DNA from: Histomonas meleagridis
Taxonomy: Eukaryota > Parabasalia > Tritrichomonadida > Dientamoebidae
DNA length: 64,000 bases
Assembly (NCBI GenBank): GCA_020186115.1
Contig: WSYJ01000025.1
Span: 434,001 to 498,000, forward strand
Reading direction: 5' to 3'
The position numbers and the translations under genes are program-made. Of the stretch, positions 14,507 to 40,117 are shown piece by piece. The notes under the pieces were generated by a model. That model saw only the letters and a program-made list of their open reading frames with translations, was not told the origin of the DNA and ran no database searches. Each line of letters opens with the position of its first letter. The stretch's first letter is position 1.

Positions 14507-15002
14507 TCTGAAATAACCGTCCAATTTGTATGCGTTACATGTTGTCGTTAGAAAAATTTAATAAAAAGAAAAAAACTTCTTTTGTATGAAAAAACGAAAT
14601 GACCATTTAGGTCGCGTGAAATTATACTGAGAATGTTTTACCACAGATATCTTATGAATTTACAATATCACCAAAGACAAGACACAAGGAAAAAACTTAA
14701 AAAAATTTTATCAATATATCATTTAATAGATGAGAAAATTTTTAGATAGTTTCTAATTTGAGAGTGCCTTAGAGAAGACATTTTACTCCTTAATGTTTAT
14801 AATTCACAAAATGTTAGGATTTTTGAGAAATTAGAATTTTTAAAATCGGTCACATAAATTGGTTGAAAAGCAGTGATTTTGATCGTTTTTAATAGAATCG
14901 TGTTCAAAAAGTGGAATAAAATCGAATATTTTCGAACAAACCAAGAAGTTTTTGTTTGACATGTAAACAATACAATTCTAACCGTTGGAAATACGTTCGT
15001 CC
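14507..15002. other. Divergent promoter region
   Basis: A 496-bp gap between divergent genes. TAACCGT sits at 14514-14520, 8 bp from the WD40 start, and TAACCGTT at 14979-14986, 17 bp before the coiled-coil ATG. The 5' leaders must be very short. Confidence 0.5.
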
Positions 15003-18000
15003 ATGAGCAAAACAAATTTCCCTACAGATGAGGGAAATCACTACCAACGTGGGTTGGCTCTAATGGATGAATGCTTAACATCAAATTTTACTGTTGATTT
15101 TATGAAAATTAAAGAGAAATTAGATTCTGCATTGATTGATCCGATTAACATAATTTCTCAAATTGTATCCGAAACTTCAGATAATGGTAAATGGGTAAGT
15201 GATGTAGAAGCAATAAAATTTTCTGCTCTGAGAAAACTTGGTGAATTAATAATGAAAAGAAAACTAAGTGGAGAAAATCAAAATGAGTTTTCAAGAATGA
15301 AAGCTGAAATCCAAAAATTGAAAGAGCGTATCAGTGAAATAGAAAATGAGGAAATTCAAAATTCAGAACAAAATCAACGAAAGGCCAATGATTTAATGAA
15401 TGAAATTAAGTCGCTCACCGAAGAAAAACTAAAGATGGAATCACAAATTAACAATTTAGAAAAGAATAACCAAACACTTCAAGAAGAATTAAATACAAAA
15501 AATCGAATAATTCAAAAAATTGAAGAAATAAACAAAAATAACGAAGAAAAAATAAAAGAAACAGAAAACAGAATCAAAGAAAATGAAGAAAAAATACAAA
15601 AATTGGAAGAAGCAAACAAATCAAAGGATGATAAGATAAAGGAAATGGAAAATAAAACCAAATTAAATGAAGAAAAAATAATAAAAATTGAAGAAGAAAA
15701 GAAATCGCTTGAACAAATGTATCAGTCAAAAGAAGAAAAGATAAAAGAAATCGAAAATCAGAATAAAGAAAATGAAGAGAAAATCATTAAAATTGAAGAA
15801 GAGAACAAAATGAAAGATGAAAAGATAAAAGAAATTGAAAGTAAAAATAAAGAAAATGAAGAAAAGATAATTAAAATTGAAGAAGAAAAGAAGTCACTTG
15901 AAGAGGTAAATAAGTCAAAAGAAGAAGAAATCCATGCACTTAATGAAGAGAATAAAATGAAAGAAGAAAAGATAATTAAGATTGAAGAAGAGAAGAAATC
16001 ACTTGAAGAACTTAATATGTCAAAAGATGAAAAAATAAAAGAAATTGAGGAAGAGAACAAAATGAAAGATGAAAAGATAACCAAAATAGAGAATAAAAAC
16101 AAAGAAAATGAAGAGAAAATCATTAAAATTGAGGAAGAGAACAAAATGAAAGATGAAAAGATAAAAGAAATTGAAAATAAAAATAAAGAAAAGGAAGAGA
16201 AAATCATTAAAATCGAAGAAGAAAAGAAGACACTTGAAGAGGTAAATCAATCAAAAGATGAAAAGATACAAAAAATTGAAGAAGAGAACAAAATGAAAGA
16301 TGAAAAGATAAAAGAAATTGAAAATAAAAATAAAGAAAAGGAAGAGAAAATCATTAAAATCGAAGAAGAAAAGAATACACTTGAAGAGGTAAATCAATCA
16401 AAAGATGAAAAGATAAAAAGAATTGAAGAAGAGAACAAAATGAAAGATGAAAAGATAAAAGAAATTGAAAATCAGAATAAAGAAAGTGAAGAAAAGATAA
16501 TTAAAATTGAAGAAGAAAAGAAGACACTTGAAGAAGTTAATAAGTCAAAAGATGAAAAGTTATCAGAAATTGAGAAAGAGAAAAATTCACTTAAAGAAAA
16601 GATTAATGCAAATGAAGAAATGATGTCAATCATTAAAGCAGATAATAATACAATCGAAAAGAAAATTTTGTCAATTGAAGAAGAAAAGAGATCTCTTCAA
16701 GAAAGGAACAGACAAAACGAAGAAAAGATAATAGAAATGGAGGAAAAGAACAAAGAAAATGAAGAAAAAATCACAAAAATTGAAGAAGAGAATAAATTAA
16801 AAGAAGAGAAAATATCTGAAATGGAAAACAAGAACAAGCAAAACGAAGAAAACATACACAAACTTAATGAAGAGAAGAAGTCACTTGAAGAATTAAATAA
16901 AGCAAAAGAAGAGAAAATATCGAAAATGGAAGAAAAGAACAAAACAAATGAAGAAAGAATCAAAGAAATGGAAAAAGAAAACAAAAAGAATGAAGAAAGC
17001 ATCCAAACGCTTAATGAAGAGAAGAAGGCACTTGAAGAATTAAATAAAGCAAAAGAAGAGAAAATATCGGAAATGGAAGAAGAGAATAAAACAAATGAAG
17101 AAAGAATCAAAGAAATGGAAAATAGGAACAAAGAAAACGAAGAAAAAATACAAATACTTAATGAAGAGAAGAAGTCACTTGAAGAATTAAATAAAGCAAA
17201 GGAAGAGAAAATCCAAACGCTTGAAAAAGAAAACAAATTAAAGGAAGAAAAGAATTTGATACTTGAAGAAGAGAATAAATCAAATGAAAACAAAATAAAG
17301 GAAATTGAAGAAGACAACAAGCAAAAAGATGAAAAGATAAAAGAAATCGAAAATAAGAATAAAGAAAATGAAGAGAAAATATTAAAAATGTCCGCAAACA
17401 TAAAATCGAATGAAGAGAAAATCCAAAAAATCGAAAAAGATAACAAAATAAAAGAAGAAAATATTTCAAAGCTTGAAGAATTAAAGAAATCGAATGAAGA
17501 GAAAATCCAAAAAATCGAAAAAGAAAACGAAACGCTCGAAGAAGACAACAAACACAAAGAAGAAAAGATAAAAGCGAATGAAGCAGAGAACGAAACATAT
17601 CGAAGCAAACTTCAGTCAACAGAAAATTTACTTGTTCATAGTAATGACATCATACGAAATGCACAAAACGCATTTCAGACAATTTATAATTTATTTGATT
17701 TCAAAGAAAATCAAAATAATTTATCTCCGAACATTTCAACGGCAGATATTAATTCGAATTTAAATAGTTTCATTACTTTTGCTGATAAACAATTTACAAA
17801 TTATCGTAATACAATTAATGAATATAAAATTAAAGAACAGAAACTTAAAGAAATTAACAAAAATAACGAAAATAAAATGCAGAAATTAAATGAAAATATA
17901 TCTAAACAATTGTTACAAGTTAATGAATTACAAAATGATATTAAAATTCGTGATCAAAAACTTGATGAAGCAATGAAAAGTATCGAAAAACATAAAAAAC

Positions 18001-18923
18001 TTGAAGCCAAAGCAATGCAAGTAGCTAAGAAATGTAAGTCTTTAGATGCATCACTTTCTCATCTAAACAAAATCGATCAAGACACAGTAAATTTAATTAT
18101 TAAAGCATTTCCAACGCTTAAATCCAATTATTCAAATGATTTGCCGCTGAACAAATTAATTGAATTGTTTATAAATCAAATCGTTTCAAATTTCAATACA
18201 AAATTCACTTCACATTTCACTTCTCTAAACGAATTCGTTCAACAATTCAATAGCAAATATGACGTTTTCATATCACAATTCACTGAATTTAAATCAAAAT
18301 TTGAACAATTTCTCAGCAATTTTAATGATATAATTAATTCTTATAATGATACATTACAAATAGTTTTCCCACAATATCCAACAGTATCAACAAATATAGA
18401 TTCTAAAGCAATACATAGAAAAATAATTAAATTACAAGCAATACTTTTATCAACATTTCAGTTAATACCAAATATCACTGTTCCACATAAGCTTCAAATT
18501 TATAATTCTGCGCTTGGATTACGCAAATGTCTTTTATCAAATAAAGTCGATAATAACGAACTTTTTAAGGACATAAGCGTAACAGAACTTAAAAATACAA
18601 ATGGGAAACATTGCGGAAGAATATACGAACTGGAAAAAGCAAATAAAGAAATGATGCAATCATTATATGAGTCAATGCCACTTAAAGATATTGCAAAAAT
18701 GCTTTGCGAAATGTTAGAAATAGAAAGCGTTGAAAATGCTGACGAAAAGAAAATTGTTGAATTGTTAGCAATGATAAAAGAAAAGGTTGAAGAAGCGGAA
18801 GGAGTTAAGAAAAGGTTTGCTGCATACAAAGAAGTCGTAAATGCATTGTTACAAGGAATTGGAAACAAGGCGCCGCCAAATATTATGCCAATAATCAAAA
18901 AATTGCATAATGCAAAAGTGTAA
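15003..18923 (+). CDS. Giant heptad-repeat coiled-coil protein
   Basis: The first ATG is at 15003 (an upstream in-frame TTG is not needed), giving 1306 residues. Residues about 1-85 are a helical head. From about 90 to 880 the sequence is an unbroken Lys/Glu coiled coil of the form EEKIIKIEEENKMKDEKIKEIENKNKENEEK. A C-terminal helical domain with Asn/Ser-rich loops follows (about 880-1306). Within the coil, blocks repeat every 147 bp (49 residues, seven heptads) and 84 bp (four heptads). The protein resembles golgin, centrosomal or filament-type proteins only in architecture; no conserved GRIP or other targeting domain is visible. Coding-strand composition is extremely A-rich. Confidence 0.88.
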   Translation: MSKTNFPTDEGNHYQRGLALMDECLTSNFTVDFMKIKEKLDSALIDPINIISQIVSETSDNGKWVSDVEAIKFSALRKLGELIMKRKLSGENQNEFSRMKAEIQKLKERISEIENEEIQNSEQNQRKANDLMNEIKSLTEEKLKMESQINNLEKNNQTLQEELNTKNRIIQKIEEINKNNEEKIKETENRIKENEEKIQKLEEANKSKDDKIKEMENKTKLNEEKIIKIEEEKKSLEQMYQSKEEKIKEIENQNKENEEKIIKIEEENKMKDEKIKEIESKNKENEEKIIKIEEEKKSLEEVNKSKEEEIHALNEENKMKEEKIIKIEEEKKSLEELNMSKDEKIKEIEEENKMKDEKITKIENKNKENEEKIIKIEEENKMKDEKIKEIENKNKEKEEKIIKIEEEKKTLEEVNQSKDEKIQKIEEENKMKDEKIKEIENKNKEKEEKIIKIEEEKNTLEEVNQSKDEKIKRIEEENKMKDEKIKEIENQNKESEEKIIKIEEEKKTLEEVNKSKDEKLSEIEKEKNSLKEKINANEEMMSIIKADNNTIEKKILSIEEEKRSLQERNRQNEEKIIEMEEKNKENEEKITKIEEENKLKEEKISEMENKNKQNEENIHKLNEEKKSLEELNKAKEEKISKMEEKNKTNEERIKEMEKENKKNEESIQTLNEEKKALEELNKAKEEKISEMEEENKTNEERIKEMENRNKENEEKIQILNEEKKSLEELNKAKEEKIQTLEKENKLKEEKNLILEEENKSNENKIKEIEEDNKQKDEKIKEIENKNKENEEKILKMSANIKSNEEKIQKIEKDNKIKEENISKLEELKKSNEEKIQKIEKENETLEEDNKHKEEKIKANEAENETYRSKLQSTENLLVHSNDIIRNAQNAFQTIYNLFDFKENQNNLSPNISTADINSNLNSFITFADKQFTNYRNTINEYKIKEQKLKEINKNNENKMQKLNENISKQLLQVNELQNDIKIRDQKLDEAMKSIEKHKKLEAKAMQVAKKCKSLDASLSHLNKIDQDTVNLIIKAFPTLKSNYSNDLPLNKLIELFINQIVSNFNTKFTSHFTSLNEFVQQFNSKYDVFISQFTEFKSKFEQFLSNFNDIINSYNDTLQIVFPQYPTVSTNIDSKAIHRKIIKLQAILLSTFQLIPNITVPHKLQIYNSALGLRKCLLSNKVDNNELFKDISVTELKNTNGKHCGRIYELEKANKEMMQSLYESMPLKDIAKMLCEMLEIESVENADEKKIVELLAMIKEKVEEAEGVKKRFAAYKEVVNALLQGIGNKAPPNIMPIIKKLHNAKV
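15780..16580 (+). repeat. 147-bp and 84-bp in-frame duplications in the coiled-coil gene
   Basis: A segment beginning ACAAAATGAAAGATGAAAAG recurs at about 16141, 16288 and 16435, exactly 147 bp apart. A related pair at about 15804 and 15951 is also 147 bp apart, and one at 16057 is 84 bp before 16141. Both periods are multiples of 21 bp, so heptad phase is kept. Confidence 0.85.
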
Positions 18924-20372: not shown

Positions 20373-20933
20373 TGCCACTTTTTAATCCGATTTTTTAAAG
20401 GGAAAATGATCGTTAATTTTTTGCTGTCACTTTTGCTCAACTTGGCACCTGCTTTATAATGAATATAATATCATTTGTTTGATTAAAAAAATGAATCAAT
20501 TTCTTATCTATCATTTATTATTCACCTGAAATTCTTCAGATAAAAATTGTTATTTTTTTTAAATCCATATCATATGGATTCTTCTGAGTGGTTATAATCC
20601 CAAATTTATGAATTCATTATAATTTTCAAATCATTGAAGATTTTTGATAACATTATCTAAATATTCTACATAAGCTTCAAGCTATTCGGTGTTTAGTCCT
20701 AAATCCATTCGGTGTTTTATTATTTTTAATTATATTCACACATTTATAATTCCATTCGATGTTTTGTTATTTTTAATATTATTCACACAGTTCTAATTCC
20801 ATTCAATGTTTTGTTATTTTTAATATTATTCAACACAGTTCTAATTCCATTCAATGTTTTGTTATTTTTACATTCAGCACAGCTCCAACAGAGGTTATCC
20901 ATGTTTTCTTTAATTAACTATTTATACTTTCAT
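20373..20933. other. Intergenic with 47-bp tandem repeats
   Basis: A gap between two minus-strand genes. It contains the tandem repeat listed at 20704-20889 and no open frame worth calling. Confidence 0.5.
20704..20889 (+). repeat. 47-bp tandem repeat, four copies
   Basis: Copies start at 20704, 20751, 20798 and 20846 with TCCATTCRRTGTTTTRTTAT and end in TTCACACAG/TTCAACACAG-like sequence followed by TTCTAAT. The second and third copies differ by one or two bases; the first and last are more diverged. A partial copy (ATTCGGTGTTTAGTCC) lies at about 20684. It sits just 3' of the minus-strand 952-residue gene. Confidence 0.85.
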
Positions 20934-23792
20934 TTATTTTTGTTTGCTTTTTCCCTTCTTGTCCTGCTTCGTGTTGCTGTCCATGTGTGTGTTGAGCTGC
21001 TTCTTGAACTCTATTTGCTCTGTGTTTTGTGTAGCCAAGCACATGTCGTAGAACTGCATTATCAAGTCCTGCGTCTTCTGATACTTTTCGAACTTTGCTG
21101 GCGCCAACTTGATCAAACAAGCGATTGATCCCACTGCCGGTAATGTTGCCTGCACTACTTTCGCGCGAAGTGCTGCCGAGTTACATCCCCATAACCTGAT
21201 TAAGAAATGCATAAACTGTCTAATGACTGCAGGGTCATCACTATTTGCCAAAGTCAAAAACAATTTTTGGATTTGTTCATATGAAAACAATTTCATTCCG
21301 CATTGTAAGAAGTCGACCATTGAATTCATCAATTTCCATGACATAAAGAATTCTTTATTTGATGATTTATCCAAATTGGAAATCAACTTATTCATGAAAT
21401 TAATATTTTCGATAATAGTTAAATTACAACCCTCAACTTTAGAGAACGGTAGCAGCGCCGATAGAACCTGTATTTGGGGCGCCCTAGAATCCGTTATCTT
21501 CTGTGCTATCGTTGTCAGTTTATTTTGATAATTTGCAGCTGAGAAATTTGATATTAAAGAAGGGTTACATAATAATTTTGCAGCTTGTTGGAACATATTT
21601 GAAAAGTTCGATAAGTCAGCATGATCAAATATTGGTAAAAGCAAGAAACCGTTTAAGCACAATTTACATTCATTTAAATGTCCTGCCAAAATTTGTAATA
21701 ACAAAGAACAAAACATATTCATGAATTGGGTAAAGTTATTATCGATGTATATATTCGATGATAATATTATCGACGATATGACTGAACCTTTTCCGTTATA
21801 TATGAATCGTAATAAAAATCGTCGGCCTAAATCATAATTAGAAATTATATTCGCGCGCTTAAAGAAATCTTTTCCGATTAATGAACATATTAAACTTCGC
21901 GTCTTAATCTCTGCTATCATTCCCATTAACCTTGAGTTAGTACTTTTGGTATTAGATTCAAGTGATTTCCATAACTTATTACGTCGTTCCGGGATTTGTT
22001 TAACAACATTCGAATCAAGTTCTCGACAATATTGCATGATTAAGTCAAAGAATAATGTGTCCATTAAATCTTTTTGGAACTCTAAAATAGTCGAAAATAA
22101 ATACAATTGCGATAACGATATGTCAAAGTTTGACGCATTTGATGGCTTAATCAAAGTAATTCGTGGTTCTGGTAATACTAATAATTGTTCTGTTAATGAA
22201 TATAATGAATCTAAATTTTCTGGAGTCTTAATATAATTAAATAAATCAAGACTAAAATTGGGTGTCATTAAATGTGGTAAAATAATGGAAAAGCGTGCAA
22301 ATTGTAATGGCGATAATTTAATGAGAGATAACGCAACAAATAATTTCTTAACAGTAAGATAATGTTGTAAAAATTCCATAATGGTCGAATAAATTGGATG
22401 TTGACGTCGTCGTTTCGTTATTGATGAGCGTAAAGATGAATGCTCGTCAGAACCGTCGGAAACCGCCTTAACGTTCTCCGGTGGAGAATCTTCAATTTTC
22501 TTCGGAACGGACATTGGCTGATCTTCAAGAACATCAACCGCTAATGGTGAGGTTGAGTTTTGTAATAACGATTGACCAAGTTTGGAGGAAGATGATGTTG
22601 ATCGTGGGATTTGACCAAATACTGAATTAGAACGAGAACTAAGATGTGAACTCGACTTACGTTTAACAGAACGTGAACGAATACGATTGGCTTGGTTGGC
22701 TGCTATTTGGAAAGATTCTTGATCAAACCCAACATTTAAAAGATCGAGAATTTGATTCATCCCTGAATGCTCATGTTTGGCAAAGACCTCTAAAATACGT
22801 TTCTCTGCTCGGTCATCAAGAGGTACAGTCTTACTACAAACTAATGGAGTATCAGAATAAATTGCTCTCATATGACACCCATAATATTTGAAGTCAAGAA
22901 GAAACTCTGTTTGGTCAAAGCCAACTACAATACAATTGTCAGGTACAGATGTCATTCGATATCCAGATGGATAATTTGATAGCTTTTTAAGACTTGAGGC
23001 TTCTTCCTCAGTGCCACTAAACGCTAATCCTTTGGCCCATGAAAAGTCGTGCGTCTCTAGTTTTTCTTTTGGTTTTGCTTGCATTTTATATATTGGTGAA
23101 TTTGGAATTAAATCTACTTTGATGTCTAAAGCTTTGGGACGAAGAGGAATTTTAAGGCCTTCGGCGCAAACATTTCTCCAGTTTTTATAAGCTTCTTCAA
23201 AGTCCTGGAATTTATCATATAAAAACGGATATGGTTCACGTGGAAGAAGTTGAGATTGCCATTGAGGTTCTTTTGTGACTTGATGTTTAAAATTGAGTAC
23301 GTCTCTATTTGGATATTGAACTGGAAATGTATCTTCATCTCTAAAATCATATCCACTAAAAATTATTTTGTCCATTACTACATAGTTAATAGGCGTTGGC
23401 GGCATTTTCCTTGGGTTAAATCCTCTGTATTGATGTGATCCAACTTTTACATGATATGGTTTTTGAGGTATACGTAAATCCGCAACAATTGGAGTAGCTA
23501 AGTAGAATCCACTTACTAACTTCTTTGTTTGTTGTTTCCATTCACGACATTCTGAATAATAATTACTTTTAGTTGTAACATTTTCTGGCAAAGGAAAAGT
23601 TTGAGGAGAAATTTCTAACTCCTCTTGTTTTCCTGTTTTTGCTTTTACAGGTCTGTATAGTTTATCATAAATTCTTTTTTTGGAATCAAGAAAAACGGGT
23701 TCTGTGGTCCTATTAGGTTTTGTAGGGCTCTTGGGAGACGAAAGGGTATTGTTTTTTGATTTGTTAATTGATGAATTTTGTGTAACCTTCAT
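20934..23792 (-). CDS. Conserved-looking protein of unknown function, helical C-terminal half
   Basis: From the ATG at 23792 the protein has 952 residues. I do not recognise a family. The first 60 residues are Ser/Lys/Asn-rich. Residues about 90-375 form a Trp/Tyr/Pro-rich region (YYSECREWKQQTKKLVSGFYLATPIVADLRIPQKPYH; PYPFLYDKFQDFEEAYKNWRNVC) that looks globular. Residues about 375-470 are Ser/Arg-rich and disordered. Residues about 470-930 are all-helical with a HEAT/ARM-like look (FAALSLIKLSPLQFARFSIILPHLM-type helices). The tail is Lys-rich (KQDKKGKSKQK). There are no membrane segments. TAACGGTT lies at 23845-23852, about 50 bp upstream. Confidence 0.75.
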   Translation of the reverse strand: MKVTQNSSINKSKNNTLSSPKSPTKPNRTTEPVFLDSKKRIYDKLYRPVKAKTGKQEELEISPQTFPLPENVTTKSNYYSECREWKQQTKKLVSGFYLATPIVADLRIPQKPYHVKVGSHQYRGFNPRKMPPTPINYVVMDKIIFSGYDFRDEDTFPVQYPNRDVLNFKHQVTKEPQWQSQLLPREPYPFLYDKFQDFEEAYKNWRNVCAEGLKIPLRPKALDIKVDLIPNSPIYKMQAKPKEKLETHDFSWAKGLAFSGTEEEASSLKKLSNYPSGYRMTSVPDNCIVVGFDQTEFLLDFKYYGCHMRAIYSDTPLVCSKTVPLDDRAEKRILEVFAKHEHSGMNQILDLLNVGFDQESFQIAANQANRIRSRSVKRKSSSHLSSRSNSVFGQIPRSTSSSSKLGQSLLQNSTSPLAVDVLEDQPMSVPKKIEDSPPENVKAVSDGSDEHSSLRSSITKRRRQHPIYSTIMEFLQHYLTVKKLFVALSLIKLSPLQFARFSIILPHLMTPNFSLDLFNYIKTPENLDSLYSLTEQLLVLPEPRITLIKPSNASNFDISLSQLYLFSTILEFQKDLMDTLFFDLIMQYCRELDSNVVKQIPERRNKLWKSLESNTKSTNSRLMGMIAEIKTRSLICSLIGKDFFKRANIISNYDLGRRFLLRFIYNGKGSVISSIILSSNIYIDNNFTQFMNMFCSLLLQILAGHLNECKLCLNGFLLLPIFDHADLSNFSNMFQQAAKLLCNPSLISNFSAANYQNKLTTIAQKITDSRAPQIQVLSALLPFSKVEGCNLTIIENINFMNKLISNLDKSSNKEFFMSWKLMNSMVDFLQCGMKLFSYEQIQKLFLTLANSDDPAVIRQFMHFLIRLWGCNSAALRAKVVQATLPAVGSIACLIKLAPAKFEKYQKTQDLIMQFYDMCLATQNTEQIEFKKQLNTHMDSNTKQDKKGKSKQK

Positions 23793-24361
23793 CAACAATC
23801 AGTCTTCCTTTTGATCGGTTTGTTCCTTGAATTTTTTAATGATCTAACGGTTTGTTCTCTGGTTTTAAATTCAAAATGTTGACAGTTCTGAAAAAAATAA
23901 AAAAACAAAGAAATTTGTCACAACTCGAAAAGGACTTTAAGTTCTTTCTTGTTTACGAGTAGTGTTAAGTCATAAGAATTACGCCATTCAAATGTTTTTC
24001 GATAGTGAAAGTTATTAATCATTAATAATATATTTTTAAACTGTTGTCTTCTGGCTTACAAATATTGATCACTAACTTACCAAGGAGGGCTCATATAAGT
24101 TGACCAATAACAAATCTGAATTACAACCTGATAATATCAGATTTAATATTTGAAAAAGAAATTTGAATAAAGCATTTCACCTTCCATAATTTGGTTCAAA
24201 ATAAGGTAATAACATCGTTTAACATTAAGAATCGAAGAATTATCTCATCAAATCGGTGTTAACGGTCGCCATCAGTAAATTAATTTGTTTCATTCTTCTT
24301 CGAGTTTTTACTTTAGCACACTCTAAAAATTAAAATTAAAGTTCTATTTTATTAAATATTG
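23793..24361. other. Intergenic
   Basis: A 569-bp gap between minus-strand genes. It holds TAACGGTT (23845-23852) next to the upstream gene start and TTAACGGTCGCCATCAG near 24259. No gene is seen. Confidence 0.45.
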
Positions 24362-25003
24362 TTAGTGTTTTCTTTCTCTCTTCCATTGATAAGAAACATT
24401 TCCCTCATCATCCTCATATGTGGTATGTTCGCCATCTTTAAGGTCTTTTTGTAACTGCATTTCATCATATACTTCTTGAAGCTGATTAACAATTTTTTCT
24501 CTTTGTGCAATTTCTTTTTTCAGTTCTCTGATTTCAGGAGTAGGTTCCTCTGCTGCTTCTTCTTGTTCCTCCTTTTCTTTGGCGGCTAAAGCTTCTTCAA
24601 TTGTTGCAAAAAATCGAGTTGGTTTGGGTTTTGGAGGAGGAATCATTTGTTTTAACTCTTCAAGTTTTTTACGGTGAATCTGCAGTTTCATCTGAATATA
24701 GTTTTGATCACGTGTTTCTAGTAAAAGACGTTGCTCTTTATTAAAGTGACTTAATGGTTTTGATTTTGTTTCTAATTTTTTCTTTTTCGAATCAGTAATC
24801 ATTGAAAAATAAAATTCATCAGGATTTCTTTGTGCTGCCTCTCTTTTCATTTGATGAATAAAATTATCTTTTTCATGTTGATATTTAGCTCTTATTACAT
24901 AATCTTTCTTTTTTTCAAGGAACCCAAGGTGGGCGCGTGAGCTGGGTTGTTGACGCTCTCTTTTTTTCTTTTGATATGGAAACTTCCATTTATTGGAGTT
25001 CAT
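24362..25003 (-). CDS. UTP11: Utp11, U3 snoRNP / SSU processome protein
   Basis: The 213-residue basic protein has the Utp11 hallmarks: an N-terminal RERQQPSSRAHLGFLEKKKDYVIRAKYQHEKDNFIHQMKREAAQRNPDEFYFSMI block aligns with the family core (LEKKKDYVLRA, RNPDEFYFGM). Residues about 130-200 are an acidic/basic helix. Utp11 acts in the nucleolus in early 18S rRNA processing with U3 snoRNA. It is slightly shorter than the human protein (about 250). The gene is divergent from the ankyrin gene starting at 25074, with only 70 bp between. Confidence 0.92.
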   Translation of the reverse strand: MNSNKWKFPYQKKKRERQQPSSRAHLGFLEKKKDYVIRAKYQHEKDNFIHQMKREAAQRNPDEFYFSMITDSKKKKLETKSKPLSHFNKEQRLLLETRDQNYIQMKLQIHRKKLEELKQMIPPPKPKPTRFFATIEEALAAKEKEEQEEAAEEPTPEIRELKKEIAQREKIVNQLQEVYDEMQLQKDLKDGEHTTYEDDEGNVSYQWKRERKH

Positions 25004-25073: not shown

Positions 25074-26423
25074 ATGCCTGTAAAAAGAAGCAAGAAAAAC
25101 AATAATACTAAATCATCAAATTATTATCTTGAAACTCTTTGCGAGCTTCAAAAAATTATATTTAATTTATCTCAAGAAAATTTTGAATTATCAATTGAAC
25201 AAACAATGAAGTTATTTGATATTAATTTTCCTAATTCATGTAATTTAGTTATTTGTAATTTAGCTTATTATGCATTTTTTTCACACAAAGAAATAAATAA
25301 TTTATATATTAAATATTTAGAAAAAATTCAAACAAAAGAAGAAGAAATCTATAAAAATAAATCTAAAGTTTTTAACATTTTTTATAATTGTATATCTAAA
25401 ACACTCACACAAGAATCATTATATTTAATTGAGAAAATGATTGTAGAAAATTTAATTGATGAAAATATAGTTGAAAATTTAGTTGAAAATGTTCAACCAC
25501 TTTATTTTATTCATCGACAAAAAGAAAAAGAAATTAAAAATATCATTAAAACAAATAAACCTCATTTCATCAATATAATGCATTATATAAATAATCATGA
25601 AGAGCTTAAACAAAATGATTGGGAACTTCATAAGAAATTAATTAAAAAAGGACGTAATCCGAATGAAATTGCGAAAATAATTCGAAATGATGAAATCGAA
25701 AAACTTCAAGAAATATCATCACAAGCAAATTTTGATTTTAATCAAATAATTCAATTATCTCTTTATGAAAAATGTTCATTTATTAATCATGAAAATGTTA
25801 CAATAATTGATTATGCAGCATTTTTTTCAGCAGTCAAATGTTTTAAATATTTAATTATAAATGGTGCAAATGTTTTTAACACAGGTAAATATGCTGTTGC
25901 AGGCGGAAATATTGAAATCGTTCATTTATGTGAACAAAATCATTCTTCATTTGAAGGCACATACGAAGCAGCAATTGAATTTCATCAAAATGATATCTTT
26001 AAATATCTTTATGAAAATAATTCCGAAAAAGTTAAAACATTAGAAGAAAATAATTTTCCAATTACTGGTAACTCATCAATTAATTTCAATAGTTTTAATA
26101 ATATAAATTTATGTTCAACTTCTGGTAAAAAAAAGGGACAAAAATATTTAAATATTTTAGGACATTTTTGTATTTTGTATCATAATTATGAAATTTTATC
26201 ATATTTAATTGAAAAAAGAATGAAAAGCAATGAAAAGATGATTTATGAAATTGCATCGCTTGGAAATTTATATCTTATTAAATATTTTAATGAATTTCCT
26301 GATAAAATTTTGTTTCATGCTATAGAATCAGGAAATGATGAGCTTGAGAAATTTATTTTAGAAAGAAAAGTAATTAATATCAATCTTAAAAACAAGATTT
26401 TTTTGATTTATTTTTTGTTTTAA
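25074..26423 (+). CDS. Ankyrin protein, N-terminal (DUF3447-like) part of ankyrin locus 1
   Basis: From the ATG at 25074 the frame encodes 449 residues. Residues about 15-190 are the helical N-terminal region common to the three ankyrin loci here. QLSLYEKCSFINHENVTIIDYAAFFSAVKCFKYLIINGANV and the following units match the DUF3447/ankyrin region of trichomonad proteins. It ends FILERKVININLKNKIFLIYFLF, right after one ankyrin unit, at a stop within the first AT-rich spacer. Compared with the other two loci it carries an extra Asn/Lys-rich insert (about residues 325-360). The reading frame continues, shifted, into the array at 26424-28432, so this may be only the first exon-like part of a larger gene. 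A short protein ending here is the literal reading. Confidence 0.75.
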   Translation: MPVKRSKKNNNTKSSNYYLETLCELQKIIFNLSQENFELSIEQTMKLFDINFPNSCNLVICNLAYYAFFSHKEINNLYIKYLEKIQTKEEEIYKNKSKVFNIFYNCISKTLTQESLYLIEKMIVENLIDENIVENLVENVQPLYFIHRQKEKEIKNIIKTNKPHFINIMHYINNHEELKQNDWELHKKLIKKGRNPNEIAKIIRNDEIEKLQEISSQANFDFNQIIQLSLYEKCSFINHENVTIIDYAAFFSAVKCFKYLIINGANVFNTGKYAVAGGNIEIVHLCEQNHSSFEGTYEAAIEFHQNDIFKYLYENNSEKVKTLEENNFPITGNSSINFNSFNNINLCSTSGKKKGQKYLNILGHFCILYHNYEILSYLIEKRMKSNEKMIYEIASLGNLYLIKYFNEFPDKILFHAIESGNDELEKFILERKVININLKNKIFLIYFLF

Positions 26424-28432
26424 TTTAATGTTTGGAAATTATTTATATTATTTCAACCTGCACTTATAATTGAAACTGTTAAAGAACATGTAGAAATGGT
26501 TAAATTAATACTAGAACAAAAAGGAATTAATGTAAATGTTGATGATATTTAATTATTTTATTTAATATTTGGTTTAATAACTTTTGGTATCAATATATTA
26601 TTCGGAATTTATTTAAATCATTTTCAACAGCACTTATGTATGCATCTGGAAATGGCAACATGGAAATCGCTAAATTACTTCTTAAAAAAAGAGGAATTGA
26701 TGTTAATGCTAAAGACATTTATTTATTTTATTTGATATTTATATTAATAATTTGATATTTCAATCTAATATTTGGAAATTATTTTAATTACTTAGAACAG
26801 CACTTATATTTGCATCTAAAGATGGTAAAAATGAAATAGTTAAATTACTTCTCGAACAAAAAAGAATTGATGTCAATTTAAAAGAAAAAAATTTTTTAAT
26901 TAATTTCTGATTTATATAAAAAATTTAAAATATCAAAATAATATTTGGAAATTATTTAAAATATTTACGACAGCACTTATGTATGCATCTGAAAATGGTA
27001 ATATTGATATCGTTAAAATACTTATTGAACAAGAAGGAATTGATATTAATGCTAAAAGCATGTGTTTATTTTATATAAAATTTGTTTTAATAATTTTTAA
27101 TTTCAAAATAATATTTGGGAATTATTTAAATTGATTCAAACAGCACTTATGCTTGCATCTTCAAATGGTCATATAGAAATAGTCAAATTAATTCTTGAGC
27201 AAAACGAAATTGATATTAATGATAAAGATATTTGTTTGTTATATTTAATATTTATTTTAATAATTTTTTATTTCAAAATAATATTTGGAAATTATTTATT
27301 ATATTTCAAACAGTACTTATGCTTGCTTCTTTAAATGAGCATTCAGAAATAGTTAAATTTCTTCTTGAACAAGAAGGAATTGATATTAATTCTGCGAATA
27401 TTTCTATATTGTATTTAATATTTATTTTAACAATTTAATAACTTAAAACAATTTTTGGAAATTATTTATTATATTTCAAACTGCACTTATGTATGGATCT
27501 GAAAAAGGTTATAAAGAAGTTATCAAATTACTTCTTGAGCAAGAAGGAATTGATATCAATGCTAAAGAATATTTTTACTTTTTCTATTTAGGATTTGTTT
27601 TTATGATTTTATATTTCAAAACAAGATTTGGAAATTATTTGAAGCATTCCAAACAGCATTAATGTTTGCAACTTTAAATGAGCATATAGAAATAGTTAAA
27701 TTACTTCTTGAACAAAAAGAAATTGATGTTAATGCTAAAAGCATTTGTTTGTTTTATTTAAAATTTATTACAATAATTTTTTATATCAAAATAATATTTG
27801 GAATTTTTTTATATTATTTTTTACAGCACTTATTTGTGCTGTTATAAAAGAAAATATAATAATAGTTAATTTACTTCTTAAACATGAAGAAATTGATATA
27901 AATGCCAAAGATGTTTACTTACCATATTTAATATTTGTTTTAATAATTTCCTATTTCAAATGAATATATGGAAATTATTTAAAATATTTAAAACAGCACT
28001 TATGATTGCATCTGATGAAGGTAATACAGAAATAGTTAAATTACTTCTTGAACAAAAAGGAATTGATATTAATGCTAAAAATATTTGATTGTTTTAATTA
28101 ATATTTATTTTGTTAATATGATATTTCAAAAATAATATATGGAAATTATTGAAAGTATTTGATACATCACTTATTAAAGCAACTAAAAAAGGTAATAGAA
28201 ATATCGTTAAATTACTTCTTGAACAAAAAGGACTTGATATTAATGCTAAAAATATATATTTGTTATATTTAAATTTTGTCTTAATAATTTAATATCTCGA
28301 AATAATATTTGGAAATTATTAATAATATTTATGTCATCACTCGCTATTGCATATGAAAAATCTTTTGGTGATATAGTTGATCTCCTTCTTGCACAAAATG
28401 GGATTGATACAAATGTCAAAAAAATAAGATAA
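26424..28432 (+). repeat. Ankyrin array 1: twelve 170-bp units
   Basis: Twelve ankyrin units begin (first Ala/Val/Ser codon of TALM) at 26460, 26630, 26800, 26973, 27143, 27313, 27483, 27656, 27826, 27996, 28166 and 28336. Spacings are 170 bp, with 173 twice; all equal 2 modulo 3. Each unit is an uninterrupted ALM.AS..G..EIVKLLLEQ.GIDINAKD repeat of about 29 codons followed by an AT-rich spacer of about 70-85 bp containing TTTCAAAATAATATTTGGAA. Consecutive units are in different frames and most spacers hold a stop. The last unit ends at TAA 28430-28432. None of the twelve repeats contains a stop or frameshift. Confidence 0.9.
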
Positions 28433-28915: not shown

Positions 28916-29898
28916 AATAAAACGAATAAATATCTTCAGCATTAATATCAATTCCTTCTTGTTCAAGAAGTAATTTAACTATTTCTGTATTACCTTCATC
29001 AGATGCTATCATAAGTGCTGTTTTAAATATTTTAAATAATTTCCAAATATTATTTTGAAATTCTAAATTATTAAAATAAATATTAAATAAAACAAATAAA
29101 TATCTTTAGCATTAATTTCAATTCCTTCTTGTTCAAGAAGTAATTTAACTATTTCTGTATGACCATTTTCAGCTGCAAACATAAGTGCTGTATTAAATAA
29201 TTTAAATAATTTCCAAATATTATTTTGAAAAATTGATATTAAATAAAACAAATAAATATCTTCAGCATTAATATCAATTCCTTCTTGTTCAAGAAGTATT
29301 TTAACTATTTCTGTATGACCATTCCAAGATGCCCACATAAGTACTGTAATAAATAATTTAAATGATTTCCAAATATTATTTTGAATTTCCAAATTATTAA
29401 TATAAATTTTAAACAAAACAAATAAATATCTTTATCATTAATATCAATTCCTTCTTGTTCAAGAAGTAATTTAACTATTTCTGTATGTCCATTTGAAGAT
29501 GCAAACATAAGTACTGTTCTAAATATTTCAAATAATTTCCAAATATTATTTTGAAACATAAAATTATTAAAACAAATACAAAATAAAACAAATAAATATC
29601 TTTAGCATTAATATCAATTCCTTCTTGTTCAAGAAGCAATTTAACTATTTCTGTATGACCATTTGAAGATGCAAACATAAGTGCTGTATTAAATAATTTA
29701 AATAATTTCCAAATATTATTTTGAAATATTAAATTATTAAAATAAATATTAAATAAAACAAATAAATATCTTTAGCATTAATTTCAATTCCTTCTTGTTC
29801 AAGAAGTAATTTAACTATTTCTGTGTAACCTTTACAAGATGCAATCATAAGTGTTGTTCTAAATATTTTAAATAATTTCCAAATATTATTTTGAAATT
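28916..29898 (-). repeat. Ankyrin array 2: six units, minus strand
   Basis: On the minus strand, TALM-type unit starts recur at 170-bp steps: the marker ATAAGT lies at 29847, 29677, 29507, 29337, 29181 and 29011. The single exception is a 156-bp step (29337 to 29181), caused by a 14-bp loss in the spacer. That loss puts two neighbouring repeats into one open frame (29063-29416) reading INAEDIYLFYLISIFQNNIW then TALMFAAENGH. All six repeats are open. Spacers carry the same TTTGGAAATTATTTAAA box as array 1. The array ends abruptly at about 28916 without a C-terminal sequence. Confidence 0.9.
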
Positions 29899-31098
29899 CT
29901 AAATTATTAAAATAAATATTAAATAAAACAAATAAATATCTTTAGCATTAATTTTAATTCCTTTTTGTTTTAATACGTATTCAACAAGTTCAATATTTCC
30001 TGATCCGGCTGAAAACACCAATATATCATGGGGAATTGAATGATCTTTAAGGAAATATTTAACAAAAAAAATATTTCCAATATTTGCTGCTTCATTAATA
30101 ATATCATCATTGATCTTCATTCCTTCTTTAAGTAAATATGAAAATATTTCATAATTATGATATAAAATACAAAGCTTTCCTAATTCTTCTAAATTATGAA
30201 TTTCTTTTAACTTATTATCATAAAAATATTTAAAGATATCATTTCGATGAAATTCAATTGCTGCTTCATAAGCATTATTAAAAGATGAATGATTTTGTTC
30301 ACATAAATGAATGATTTCTTCATTTCCGCCTGCAACTGCATATTTACCTGTGTCTATTAATTTTGCACCATTTATAAGCAAATATTTAAAACATTTAACA
30401 GATCCAAAGAATGCTGCATAATTAATGGGTGTAACATATTTCGTATTTATAAAAGAACATTTTTCATAAATAGATTTATCAATTTTTTGATTATAACTAA
30501 AATTACATCGTGATGATATTTCTTGAAGTTTTTCTATTTCATCATTTCGTATTATTTTCGAAATTTCATTTGGATTATGTCCTTCTCGAATTAATTTCTT
30601 ATGAAGTTCCCAATCATTCTTTGAAAGTTCATCATAATTCGGTAAGGCACTTACAAAATCATATTCCCTTAAACGGATTGCTAATTTATCTTTAGACATA
30701 TAATGTGCAAAATAAGCACTCTGGTCGTTTTTTACAATATTTGGTTCAAGAAAATTATGTTCAATCATAGCTTCAAGAAGATAAGATGATTCATTTGTAT
30801 ACTTATTGATAAGAAATCGACCAAATACATCAAATATATTGGATTTGATTTTATTACTCTCTTCAAATGCTCTTATTTCTTTTATAATATTCAAAAATAA
30901 ATCCTTTTTATTGATTTTAATTACAAAGGAATAATATATCATTTGAATAATAATTAAATCATAAGATAAAGGATGGATTTCATCAAATTTGTTGATTATC
31001 AAACCTAAAGTTCTAGGGAAACTTTCTTCATTCAAACCAAAAATTGCTTGATTTATAGATAGAAGTGTTTCCCAGTTGCAATGTTCCTTTGGCCTCAT
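29899..31098 (-). CDS. Ankyrin protein, N-terminal (DUF3447-like) part of ankyrin locus 2
   Basis: The 399-residue frame starts at an ATG. Its sequence parallels locus 1 and locus 3 throughout: LLSINQAIFGLNEESFPRTLGLIINKF at the start, NDWELHKKLIREGHNPNEISKIIRNDEIEKLQEISS in the middle, SIYEKCSFINTKYVTPINYAAFFGSVKCFKYLLINGAK, then ankyrin-like repeats to IELVEYVLKQKGIKINAKDIYLFYLIFILII and a stop. It stops at the same structural position as the other two loci, after the first typical repeat and 13 residues of spacer. Array 2 follows directly in a shifted frame. Confidence 0.75.
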   Translation of the reverse strand: MRPKEHCNWETLLSINQAIFGLNEESFPRTLGLIINKFDEIHPLSYDLIIIQMIYYSFVIKINKKDLFLNIIKEIRAFEESNKIKSNIFDVFGRFLINKYTNESSYLLEAMIEHNFLEPNIVKNDQSAYFAHYMSKDKLAIRLREYDFVSALPNYDELSKNDWELHKKLIREGHNPNEISKIIRNDEIEKLQEISSRCNFSYNQKIDKSIYEKCSFINTKYVTPINYAAFFGSVKCFKYLLINGAKLIDTGKYAVAGGNEEIIHLCEQNHSSFNNAYEAAIEFHRNDIFKYFYDNKLKEIHNLEELGKLCILYHNYEIFSYLLKEGMKINDDIINEAANIGNIFFVKYFLKDHSIPHDILVFSAGSGNIELVEYVLKQKGIKINAKDIYLFYLIFILII

Positions 31099-37561: not shown

Positions 37562-38758
37562 ATGAGCCAAGAAAGCGAATCATTTCAATTATTACAGTCA
37601 CTTACTCAAATCATTTTTAATTTAAACCATGAAAGCATATCACAATCAGCTCAATCGACACTTAAATTAGTAAATCCGAAATATCAATATTCATTTAATC
37701 TCATTATTTGTCAATTAATATATTCATCATTTGTATCCAAAATTGACGATGCAAAAATATATTTTGATTATTTAAAGGAAATTGATGATTCCCTTAAAGG
37801 CATTTTTCAATATTTTTGTCAATTTCTTCTGAGTAAAACAACAGAAGAGTCAAAATATCTTCTTGAGAATGTTATTCGCTTAGGCCTTGCTAATCCTAAA
37901 CTTGTAGAAAATAGGCAATCGTTATATTTTGCTCATTTCAAATCGAAAGATGAGATAAATCGTCTTCGATTCTTTCCATTTGGAAAAGACTTTTTTGAAC
38001 ATTATGATGAACTTTCAAAAGATGAATGGGCACTTCATAAGAAGCATATTTATGAAGGAGTTAATCCATTAGAAGTTGCACAAATCATTCGAAATGATGA
38101 TGTTAAAAAACTTCAAGAAATAACATCACAAACTAATTTTAATTTTAGTCAAATAATTCAACCATCACTTTATGAGCGATGTTCATTTATTAATAAAATT
38201 GGAAGTTCTCTTATTGATTATTGCGCATTCTTTGGCGCAATTAAATGTTTTAGGTTTTTACTAATTAATGGTTCAAGCACTAAAAACACCGCAAAATTTG
38301 CTGTTGCTGGAGGAAATCCAGAAATTATTCATTTATGTGAACAAAATGGATCTTCTTTCGATGGTGCATATGAAACAGCAATTGAATTCCATCGAAATGA
38401 TATTTTTTATCATCTTTATAATAATCATATTTCAAAGATTAATGATGTGAACGTTTTAGCAAATAAATGTATTGAGTGTAATAACTATGATATTTTGTTA
38501 TTCTTGGAAGAAGAAGGATTAGAAATTGATCATAATTCACTAATTGTTGAATCAGCAAAAATTGGAAATTTGTTTGTTGTTAAATATTTCTTAGAAACTT
38601 ATAATGCGCCAAAAGAAATATTAACAGAATCTGCTAAATCAAGAAATCTTGAACTTATTAATTTCATTCTTGAACAAAAAGATATTGATATTAATGCAAA
38701 AGATGTTTTTTTAGTTTATCTGATGGATATTTTAATTTATTTAGTGTTTACTTTTTAG
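37562..38758 (+). CDS. Ankyrin protein, N-terminal (DUF3447-like) part of ankyrin locus 3
   Basis: The 398-residue frame starts at an ATG. It shares the whole domain order with loci 1 and 2: LLQSLTQIIFNLNHESISQSAQSTLKL, DEWALHKKHIYEGVNPLEVAQIIRNDDVKKLQEITSQ, SLYERCSFINKIGSSLIDYCAFFGAIKCFRFLLINGSS, then ankyrin repeats ending NLELINFILEQKDIDINAKDVFLVYLMDILIYLVFTF at a stop. As in the other loci the stop lies in the spacer after the first typical repeat. The eight units that follow (38759-40117) are all open, and the last ends in a proper C-terminus, so the functional gene may run to 40117 with the spacers removed. Confidence 0.78.
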   Translation: MSQESESFQLLQSLTQIIFNLNHESISQSAQSTLKLVNPKYQYSFNLIICQLIYSSFVSKIDDAKIYFDYLKEIDDSLKGIFQYFCQFLLSKTTEESKYLLENVIRLGLANPKLVENRQSLYFAHFKSKDEINRLRFFPFGKDFFEHYDELSKDEWALHKKHIYEGVNPLEVAQIIRNDDVKKLQEITSQTNFNFSQIIQPSLYERCSFINKIGSSLIDYCAFFGAIKCFRFLLINGSSTKNTAKFAVAGGNPEIIHLCEQNGSSFDGAYETAIEFHRNDIFYHLYNNHISKINDVNVLANKCIECNNYDILLFLEEEGLEIDHNSLIVESAKIGNLFVVKYFLETYNAPKEILTESAKSRNLELINFILEQKDIDINAKDVFLVYLMDILIYLVFTF

Positions 38759-40117
38759 GTTTGGAATTTATATTTGATGTTTTGTACAACATTAATATAT
38801 GCTTGTAAAAATAATATTTTTGATATTGCAAAATTGGTTTTGAGAGAAGGAATTGATTTAAATGAAAAAGATGTTTTCTATTTTTAATTAATATTAAATT
38901 TTATCAATTAAAGTTTTAAATTTGCTTTTGGAATTTAATCAAATTGTTTTTTACAGCATTAATTTATGCTTGTTATAATGGTTTTATTCAAATCACTGAA
39001 TTACTTCTTTCACAAAAAGGAATTAATGTTAATGAAGAAGATATTTGTTTTATAAATATAATATAAATTTTTATTTTTTTAGAGTTTTGTTTTTATTTAT
39101 GGCGTTTTATTGATGTATTTATAACTGCTCTTTTCCACGCATGTTCAAATGGTCATACTGAAATAGTTAAATTACTTCTTGAGAAAGAAGGAATAAATGT
39201 TAATAATGAAGCAGTATAAATATTATAATTCGATTAACTTTTTATAATTTGGTATTTATTTTTATAATTTGGTGTTTATTTGGTTTATTTTGGAATGCTT
39301 TAGCATATACATGTGGTAAAGGTCGAATTGAAATTGTAAAATTACTTCTTAATCATAAACAAATTGATATAAATGCGAGAAATATTAATTTTCTTTTTAT
39401 GCTATTTATTTAATTTATTTGATTTTTATATTTTAGTTTTGGAATTTCTTTTAATTTCTTTGGACAGCACTTATGGATGCATGTTATAATAATCGTCCTT
39501 TAGTTGTTAAATTACTTCTTGAAAGAAAAGAAATTGATGTAAATTCACGAAATATTTATATGATTTGTTTAATGTTAATTTAATTTTTTTAGAGTTTTTT
39601 GCTTTATTATGGTGTTTAATATAAATGTTTTGGTCAGCATTAATTTATGCATCGAAAGAAGGATATAATGAAATTGTTGAATTACTTCTTCAAAATAAAG
39701 AAATTGATGTAAATGCAAAAAATGTTTCAAATATTTTAATAATGTTTATTGATTTTATTTGATATTTCTTTTAATTTTTCGGATTTTGTGAATATAATTT
39801 TGGACAGCTTTGATGTATGCATGTAGAAATAGTCATTTTGAAACTGTTAAATTACTTCTTGAAAAAGAAGGAATCGATTTCAACGCAAAATCTGTTTATT
39901 TCTTTTAATCAAAGTTTGTTTTGAATATAAAATGTTAAATTTTATTATTTGGAATTTCTAAATATAATTTAATACAGCACTAATGTTTGCTTGTACTCAT
40001 GGTAATGCTAAAATCGTACAATTGCTTCTGGAACAAAAAGGTATTGAAGTTGATGAGCAATCAAAAGCATCAAAAAATGCTGAAATATCCAAACTAATGA
40101 AGGAAAAAGGATATTAA
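38759..40117 (+). repeat. Ankyrin array 3: eight units with diverged spacers and a natural C-terminus
   Basis: Units start at 38789, 38956, 39127, 39297, 39467, 39637, 39807 and 39977: spacings 167, 171, then 170 five times. Repeats read for example ALMDACYNNRPLVVKLLLERKEIDVNSRN and ALMYACRNSHFETVKLLLEKEGIDFNAKS, all without stops. The spacers share little sequence with each other beyond a TTTTGGAATTT-like box 25-30 bp before the next repeat, and most contain stops in both relevant frames. The last unit ends ALMFACTHGNAKIVQLLLEQ then SKASKNAEISKLMKEKGY and TAA, the way ankyrin proteins of this family normally finish. Confidence 0.9.

What the first reader, a model, noticed from the sequence alone, without database searches (positions are those of the whole stretch)
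25074..28432. Ankyrin locus 1: twelve intact repeats, each separated by a fixed-length, frame-shifting AT-rich spacer
Seen directly: unit starts are spaced 170,170,173,170,170,170,173,170,170,170,170 bp. Every step equals 2 modulo 3, so each repeat is out of frame with the one before, and most spacers hold a stop in the frame of the preceding repeat. All twelve repeats are free of stops. Simple pseudogene decay would hit repeats and spacers alike and would not keep length changes to multiples of three. An ankyrin repeat of 33-35 codons leaves a removable segment of about 65-71 bp per unit. Inference: the spacer is removed from the RNA (one cryptic intron per repeat), bypassed by repeated frameshifting, or the units are silent cassettes that donate sequence to the short N-terminal gene. 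Consensus GT-AG junctions do not give the right frame, so the mechanism would be unusual.
Basis: partly seen in the sequence, partly recalled or inferred. Interest (0 to 1): 0.88.

Follow-up and report, generated by a model that had tools for sequence, protein, structure and literature searches.

The report
Hypervariable ankyrin repeats split by spacers
A poultry-parasite genome holds thousands of single ankyrin repeats; in several hundred examined they vary at their predicted binding surface yet almost never contain a stop codon, while the short AT-rich spacers between them mostly break the reading frame and are likely cut out of the RNA by an unusual route that remains to be proven.

Summary
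The genome matches the Histomonas meleagridis virulent strain (same largest contig). The family is genome-wide: 110 matches to the N-terminal ORF and 5,678 to the repeat framework (control 1).

Downstream repeats behave as coding. In 284 units of 170 bp the repeat frame holds 2 stop triplets against 168 expected from column composition; spacer frames show no such depletion. Codons at ankyrin positions 5, 10, 13 and 14 are hypervariable (14-18 residues each; 1 stop, 201 expected). Spacers vary in length without keeping frame. They are not GT-AG introns: 398 of 420 lack any frame-keeping GT..AG pair, although canonical introns exist in this genome. An exact search found 0 spacer-free junctions against 1,339 with spacer.

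I infer, without RNA evidence, that each spacer is excised from RNA as a non-GT-AG, intron-like element, giving a solenoid with a diversified face. A recombining cassette reservoir is the main rival; ribosome bypass, frameshifting and plain decay rank lower.

The parts
25074..26423 (+). N-terminal ORF of locus 1 (DUF3447/Ank-type), ends inside the first spacer
   Evidence: ORF; PF11929 2.4e-07, PF12796 2.1e-06; 110 genome matches to the locus-2 homologue
26304..26396 (+). diverged ankyrin repeat carried by the ORF itself (limits read by eye from the translation)
   Evidence: Ank_2 match to residues 364-439
26454..26549 (+). repeat 1
26624..26719 (+). repeat 2
26794..26889 (+). repeat 3
26967..27062 (+). 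repeat 4
   Evidence: aligned to designed ankyrin proteins
27137..27232 (+). repeat 5
27307..27402 (+). repeat 6
27477..27572 (+). repeat 7
27650..27745 (+). repeat 8
27820..27915 (+). repeat 9
27990..28085 (+). repeat 10
28086..28160 (+). spacer 10, the one that gives a 171-bp step (0 modulo 3)
28161..28256 (+). repeat 11
28331..28432 (+). repeat 12, diverged last repeat, followed after one more codon by an in-frame TAA
29899..31098 (-). N-terminal ORF of locus 2, same family, facing locus 1
   Evidence: PF11929 3.6e-09
28929..30030 (-). array of locus 2: seven repeats (the first inside the ORF); steps 170 except one of 156
37562..38758 (+). N-terminal ORF of locus 3, same family
   Evidence: PF11929 1.6e-11
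38611..40117 (+). array of locus 3: diverged repeats mostly 170 bp apart; the last repeat runs into a hydrophilic tail and stop

Best explanation
The arrays are likely the ankyrin-repeat half of a gene family with more than 100 loci in Histomonas meleagridis, and each AT-rich spacer is likely cut out of the RNA as an intron-like element without GT-AG ends, which would join the single repeats into one long ankyrin protein with a diversified binding face. Shown: the anatomy (N-terminal ORF, then single repeats about 150-170 bp apart), the genome-wide copy number, the near-absence of stops and the hypervariability of four codons in the sampled downstream repeats, no depletion of stops in spacers, the lack of GT-AG and of trichomonad intron motifs in nearly all spacers tested, and no exact spacer-free junction in the assembly. 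Inferred: that one transcript spans the array, that about 65-74 nt (170-bp units) are removed between the Asp-Ile codons and the variable codon before Thr-Ala-Leu, and that the TGG about 20 nt upstream of each repeat together with the adjoining TTT is the recognition signal. Exact junctions and the machinery are not known.
For: (1) Coding signal in repeats only: in 284 units of 170 bp, 2 stop triplets in the repeat frame against 167.9 expected from independent columns; spacer frames 201/218, 1254/1251 and 98/124. (2) Codons at ankyrin positions 5, 10, 13 and 14 have 33, 31, 29 and 21 forms coding for 18, 18, 17 and 14 residues in 415 units, with 0, 1, 0 and 0 stops where 30, 62, 91 and 19 are expected; numbering follows the alignment to designed ankyrin proteins. 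(3) Within arrays (885 pairs) these codons differ at 0.456 per site against 0.131 in spacers, so most of the diversity arose after repeat and spacer were amplified together. (4) In 443 pairs of neighbouring repeats the inserts are mostly 48, 51 and 68 nt, with rarer longer ones in about 20-nt steps, in all residues modulo 3; five contiguous pairs, in other ankyrin genes, have 9 nt there. (5) TGG sits at -24 in 322 of 420 spacers and TTT stands before the variable codon in 374 of 420. (6) Between arrays the spacer ends differ less (0.11 and 0.10 per site) than the middle (0.19). (7) Exact spacer-free junctions: 0, against 1,339 with spacer. (8) Of 16 homologous proteins read, 11 (36-52% identical, from unnamed contigs) also end at the end of the first repeat or in a spacer-like tail. 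(9) Five arrays end in the same Ile-Leu-stop with a shared flank.
Against: No RNA or peptide evidence was available. The genome paper reports introns as scarce, at most one per gene, from AUGUSTUS trained on transcripts (passages of PMC8529796). No known splice signal is present: GT..AG in frame in 22 of 420, CTAAC in 1 of 420. Spacer ends do not pair clearly better than shuffles (-0.82 against -0.72 kcal/mol, 120 spacers), and four folded stretches gave z-scores of 0.82, -0.82, -0.56 and 0.13. Framework positions 1+2 differ no less than spacers within arrays (both 0.131), and fourfold sites differ as little as the spacer ends (0.097 against 0.102), so purifying selection on the framework or the spacer is not visible beyond homogenisation. 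Units far down the array carry stops somewhat more often (8 of 120 at position 7 or later, 7 of 295 before). Early stops mark last repeats only weakly (10 of 38 against 40 of 388 internal, p = 0.007), and 17 of the 38 'last' repeats are still followed by spacer-like sequence. The pairwise indel analysis did not separate repeats from spacers cleanly (multiples of three: 53 of 114 and 27 of 110). For the proteins of evidence (8) I do not know whether a stop codon or the gene caller sets the end.
Confidence: 0.5

Rival explanations
1. Cassette reservoir: most units are silent and donate sequence by gene conversion or unequal crossing-over to the few units that are translated, namely those behind in-frame 153-bp spacers next to an N-terminal ORF. 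The diversity was selected while units sat in the translated position.
For: Some N-terminal ORFs run on through two or three hypervariable repeats because their spacers are 153 bp and open (open frames of 541 and 611 aa; L102). Arrays are homogenised and recombining (nearly identical alternating units in C1_849171). The four variable codons do not assort freely: 303 distinct combinations in 415 units against 391.6 expected, as shared descent or transfer would give. Units at position 7 or later have stops somewhat more often (8 of 120 against 7 of 295). The layout of an incomplete gene followed by cassettes resembles lamprey VLR loci (recalled; one search gave listings only).
Against: 93 of the 110 rows have an open frame under 460 aa, so few genes would translate a hypervariable repeat; the repeat before the first spacer is not of the hypervariable kind in the three window loci. 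Distal units are still mostly stop-free. No spacer-free copies were found.
Confidence: 0.22
2. Ribosomes hop over each spacer: translational bypassing from a Phe codon shortly after the repeat to the TTT that precedes the next one.
For: TTT precedes the resume codon in 374 of 420 spacers, and an identical codon lies upstream before any stop in 355 of 420, against 58% for control triplets. Bypassing of 50 nt in one phage gene, and of 81 inserts in one mitochondrial genome, is described (passages of PMC5009743).
Against: It would need up to a dozen hops per protein in a nuclear gene. The AT-rich spacers make TTT matches cheap. No stem-loop signal and no stop fixed next to the take-off codon (stops at the first four codons after the repeat: 6, 3, 1 and 12 of 286).
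Confidence: 0.1
3. Programmed -1 frameshifting or plain read-through makes one protein that includes spacer-coded segments.
For: A single -1 switch would avoid stops in 241 of 284 units of 170 bp, and 26 of 46 spacers of 153-bp units are open in frame.
Against: Stops block 43 of 284 and 20 of 46 spacers, so a long array would usually be cut short. Spacer frames show no depletion of stops comparable to repeats. A second repeat family usually keeps in-frame stops in its spacers.
Confidence: 0.07
4. The arrays are decaying or non-coding satellite DNA, and the open repeats only reflect recent amplification of a coding unit.
For: Strong homogenisation; framework and spacer are about equally conserved (0.131 each within arrays). 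15 of the 110 rows matching the N-terminal ORF contain stops.
Against: The hypervariable codons are the most changed sites of the unit yet hold 1 stop where about 201 are expected. That needs selection on protein after amplification.
Confidence: 0.08

Closest known systems
Canonical trichomonad spliceosomal introns (Trichomonas vaginalis types A and B)
   Same: Short AT-rich elements interrupting genes; this genome has such introns, read by me in kinase and DHHC genes (L093, L095, L099, L100)
   Different: Nearly all Ank spacers lack a frame-keeping GT..AG and the GTAYG and CTAAC motifs. T. vaginalis has 63 active introns, and T. stableri 78 genes with one and three with two (passages of PMC12316389), against eleven spacers in this one array
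Non-canonical introns of diplonemids
   Same: Introns without conserved GT-AG ends in protists that keep a spliceosome (abstract of PMC12621601)
   Different: Those introns can pair extensively and bring their ends together; the spacers here do not clearly do so beyond shuffles. Here they fall at one fixed place in a tandem repeat
Translational bypassing (phage T4 gene 60, Magnusiomyces mitochondrial inserts)
   Same: Non-coding inserts, about 50 nt in gene 60, matched triplets at both ends (passages of PMC5009743)
   Different: No stem-loop excess or stop at the take-off site seen; nuclear genes; thousands of copies
Lamprey variable lymphocyte receptor cassettes
   Same: An incomplete gene next to many single-repeat modules with variable surface residues (recalled)
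   Different: Modules lie in one orientation in tandem right behind each gene examined in the window; no assembled spacer-free copy found
Designed ankyrin repeat proteins (DARPins)
   Same: Constant framework with variable surface positions; a repeat aligns to them directly; positions 5, 13 and 14 are also randomised in DARPins (recalled)
   Different: Natural genomic repertoire, position 10 also hypervariable, 34-residue repeat if 68 nt are removed

Membership tests
Ankyrin repeat | match to ankyrin profiles or solved ankyrin structures | tested here: met
   repeat 4 aligns to designed ankyrin proteins; PF12796 matches across the genome
DUF3447/Ank N-terminal protein family | PF11929 above cut-off in the ORF before the array | tested here: met
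   three of three N-terminal ORFs in the window
Canonical spliceosomal intron | GT..AG ends that keep the frame | tested here: not met
   22 of 420 spacers have any such pair of at least 18 nt with the variable codon kept; 329 have no AG before the variable codon
Canonical trichomonad intron | 5' GTAYGT-like and 3' CTAACACACAG motifs | tested here: not met
   GTA[TC]G in 6, CTAAC in 1, ACACAG in 0 of 420; the motif is used in other genes here
Any intron | absence of the spacer from mature RNA | not testable with these tools
   no transcript reads on hand
Diplonemid-type non-canonical intron | no conserved GT-AG | tested here: met
Diplonemid-type non-canonical intron | base pairing that brings the ends together | tested here: not met
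   end duplex -0.82 against -0.72 kcal/mol for shuffles, 120 spacers; four z-scores between -0.82 and 0.82
[quoted passage not shown]
   355 of 420 against 58% for control triplets
Cassette system of the VLR kind | assembled copies without spacer | tested here: not met
   0 exact spacer-free junctions against 1,339 with spacer; somatic copies could be absent from an assembly
Cassette system of the VLR kind | deaminase or other recombination enzyme | not tested
   no search made

The most novel reading that the evidence does not exclude
A protist genome carries a natural library of more than five thousand one-repeat ankyrin modules with diverse residue combinations on the binding face, and assembles them into long binding proteins by removing thousands of introns of a class without GT-AG ends, recognised by a fixed element (TGG about 20 nt before the exon, TTT at its edge).
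Probability: 0.4. Interest if true: 0.94.

Novelty: new variant of a known kind. Interest (0 to 1): 0.82.

Why it matters
If true, a trichomonad thought to have hardly any introns would splice thousands of them by unrecognised rules, and a parasite of poultry would own a repeat-based recognition repertoire comparable in design to DARPins or VLRs. Either part is directly testable with RNA sequence. It would also mean that a large gene family, about 1 Mb of sequence if all 5,678 framework matches are 170-bp units, has been little noticed: of 26 proteins returned for the N-terminal ORF one carried a Histomonas name, the word ankyrin does not occur in the main text of the genome paper, and a library search for Histomonas with ankyrin returned two papers, of which I saw one passage of one, about another ankyrin protein.

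Tried and rejected
GT-AG, GT/GC-AG and AT-AC introns: frame-keeping pairs in 22, 24 and 64 of 420 spacers, rejected as a general explanation. Spacer hairpins: four z-scores near 0. Frame-keeping spacer lengths: refuted by 153-, 150-, 156- and 171-bp steps. Poly(A)-polymerase genes as intron controls: two found, with open frames of 500 and 487 aa and no intron inside the matched domain; introns further out were not excluded. Canonical intron control: GTATGT..ACTAACACACAG gave 0 hits, but that pattern allowed only 39 nt between the motifs, less than the intron in L100, so the zero says little; CTAACACACAG gave 11 hits against 4 for the reversed control, of which I read L093, L095, L099 and L100 as introns in conserved genes. 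A second protein search drew in generic ankyrins, best identity 54% among the 120 listed of 3,422 hits. The indel alignment was too noisy to use. A conserved C-terminal cap was looked for and seen in some arrays only. Part of the output was cut, so L079 and L080 were not fully seen.
Full report
WHAT IT IS FROM. The window is part of contig C21 (434001-498000) of a 43,276,120-base assembly with 121 contigs. Contig C120 is 3,384,422 bases long, exactly the largest contig of the Histomonas meleagridis virulent strain in the genome paper (PMC8529796, passages), and a protein named Histomonas meleagridis lies on a contig of that length (P0012). The paper gives 43,414,808 bases in 187 contigs for that strain, so the held copy is not identical in contig number; it also gives 28.66% GC and introns as scarce, at most one per gene. 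I take the organism to be that species.

OBSERVATION. Twelve repeats of 32 codons start at 26454 and run to 28426, all stop-free in the repeat frame; 8 of 11 spacers hold a stop in the preceding repeat's frame. The steps are 170 or 173 except the tenth, 171, so one of the eleven steps does keep the frame. The last repeat is followed, after one more codon, by an in-frame TAA. The same anatomy appears twice more in the window, on the minus strand at 31098-28929 and on the plus strand at 37562-40117.

GENOME-WIDE FAMILY. The N-terminal ORF of locus 2 has 110 matches in the genome, two of them pieces of one locus; the search scored 109 of 2,351 first-look candidates, so this is a lower bound. 95 of the 110 rows have no internal stop. 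The 21-base framework GTTAAATTACTTCTTGAACAA with up to two mismatches occurs 5,678 times (control 1) and a 27-base spacer end 3,855 times (control 0). From the 68 loci listed, merged with the window into 57 patches, 444 units were taken by profile. Steps between 120 and 200 bp: 305 are 2 modulo 3, 71 are 0, 5 are 1; the commonest are 170 (285), 153 (46), 171 (10), 173 (9), 150 (7) and 161 (6). The 153-bp units lack 17 nt close after the repeat. Twenty further 1.4-kb stretches were fetched; at least nine of them show a second repeat family, 147 or 150 bp apart, usually with two in-frame stops in the spacer, and spacers that grow in steps of about 20 nt (part of the output was cut).

THE REPEATS ARE UNDER SELECTION AS PROTEIN. 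13 of 382 full units have a stop in the repeat frame, against 353 and 380 in the other frames. If the columns of the 284 units of 170 bp were independent, the repeat frame should hold 167.9 stop triplets; it holds 2. Spacer frames hold 201, 1254 and 98 against 218, 1251 and 124 expected. Of 440 units long enough, 415 passed a mismatch filter and 25 were dropped. In them four codons stand out: ankyrin positions 5, 10, 13 and 14, with 33, 31, 29 and 21 codon forms and 18, 18, 17 and 14 residues; 1 stop is seen and 201.4 are expected. Position 9 is also variable, mostly Met, Ile or Val (62% differ from the commonest single codon's residue), and positions 1, 16 and 17 less so (40, 37 and 33%). The numbering follows the alignment of repeat 4 to designed ankyrin proteins. 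That positions 5, 13 and 14 are randomised in DARPin libraries is from memory; the passages I read (PMC8683736) speak of randomised surface positions without numbers. The 415 units carry 303 distinct four-codon faces; free assortment would give 391.6. Within arrays (885 pairs) these codons differ at 0.456 per site, framework positions 1+2 at 0.131, position 3 at 0.165 and spacers at 0.131. So most of the diversity arose after repeat and spacer were amplified as one unit. Against this, the framework is no better conserved than the spacer, so homogenisation rather than purifying selection may explain its sameness, and units at position 7 or later have stops somewhat more often (8 of 120 against 7 of 295).

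THE SPACERS ARE NOT READ STRAIGHT THROUGH. In-frame stops occur in 20 of 46 spacers of 153-bp units. For 170-bp units a single -1 shift could avoid stops in 241 of 284, so 43 are blocked. The gap between the Ile codon and the next Thr codon is 9 nt in five contiguous pairs of other ankyrin genes (L001, L004, L008), and mostly 57, 60 or 77 nt, more rarely 80, 97, 117 and longer, in the rest of 443 non-redundant pairs.

THE SPACERS ARE NOT CANONICAL INTRONS. Of 420 spacers (gap 40-130 nt), 22 hold any GT..AG pair of at least 18 nt that keeps the frame and the variable codon, 329 have no AG before that codon, 6 have GTA[TC]G, 1 has CTAAC and none has ACACAG. Such motifs do exist in this genome: of eleven CTAACACACAG sites I read L095 and L100 (kinases), L093 (kinase-like) and L099 (DHHC protein) as introns with GTAT at the 5' side; L101 has a kinase reading frame after it. 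What the spacers share instead is TGG 24 nt before the Thr codon (322 of 420) and TTT before the variable codon (374 of 420), seen by eye also in diverged repeats such as locus 3, L004 and L071. Between arrays the spacer ends differ less (0.11, 0.10) than the middle (0.19); fourfold sites are at 0.097. Folding of four stretches and end-pairing of 120 spacers show nothing clear beyond shuffles.

NO SPACER-FREE COPY FOUND. A search with two joined consensus repeats (150 of 9,749 candidates scored, list cut) found contiguous repeats only at 60-63% identity (4 places); every listed match at or above 80% was a single repeat or ran across a spacer. The exact pattern from framework end to repeat start with 6-36 nt between gave 0 hits, with 66-96 nt 1,339.

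RELATIVES. Of 16 homologous proteins that I read, 11 (P0001-P0006, P0008-P0010, P0013, P0014; 36-52% identical, from unnamed contigs) end at the end of the first repeat or inside a spacer-like tail. Since the copies found in this genome, the window's own apart, are 55-84% identical to the query, they probably come from a relative, and the arrangement would then predate the split.

HOW IT MOST LIKELY WORKS. Repeats 2 to n carry the mark of selection as protein, no version without spacers was found, and most spacers break the frame. The simplest account is that spacers are taken out of the RNA, one per repeat, by a route that does not use GT-AG. Removing about 65-74 nt from 170-bp units would give repeats of 32 to 35 residues; 68 nt would give the 34 expected from contiguous repeats. 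The junctions are not fixed by my data. A cassette system with few translated acceptors is the main rival; ribosome bypass, frameshifting and plain decay rank lower for the reasons given in their entries.

LIMITS. There is no transcript, peptide or population evidence. Units are related by descent, so expectations from independent columns are not p-values. Most loci were chosen by similarity to locus 2. The search of literature covered an open-access library only.

Noticed in passing
L069, L070, L072, L073, L075-L077, L083, L086: A second ankyrin family with 147- or 150-bp units whose spacers usually keep two in-frame stops and expand in steps of about 20 nt; the 3-bp difference between units lies inside the repeat (Asp-Lys-Gly or Asp-Lys-Glu-Gly).
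   Followed up: partly
L093, L095, L099, L100, L101: Canonical introns of H. meleagridis: GTAT start and CTAACACACAG end in kinase and DHHC-type genes, like the motifs published for T. vaginalis (for L101 only the 3' side was seen).
   Followed up: partly
window 11200-11600 (+), 48500-49000 (+), 60600-60820 (-): Short orphan or decayed pieces of the same N-terminal/ankyrin family with one or two repeats.
   Followed up: partly
L102, L021: N-terminal ORFs that stay open through two or three 153-bp-type spacers, so that spacer-coded segments would be translated in these genes if nothing were removed.
   Followed up: partly
window 4773-7700 (-): Large surface-type protein with leucine-rich repeats of BspA kind, a long Ser-Asn-Thr-Phe repeat tract and a likely membrane segment (judged by eye).
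   Followed up: no
window 14985-18923 (+): 1312-residue ORF, coiled-coil by eye, built of nested 21-, 42-, 84- and 147-bp repeats.
   Followed up: no
window 20695-20870: Clean 47-bp tandem repeat, 3.7 copies, 90% matches, just beyond the 3' end of the minus-strand ORF 20934-23798.
   Followed up: no
window 24362-25003 (-): Short ORF divergent from the locus 1 gene, only about 70 bp from its start codon; a possible shared promoter.
   Followed up: no
P0012: The one named Histomonas protein returned for the N-terminal ORF is filed as a caskin; only PF11929 was listed for it, and the name was not tested.
   Followed up: no
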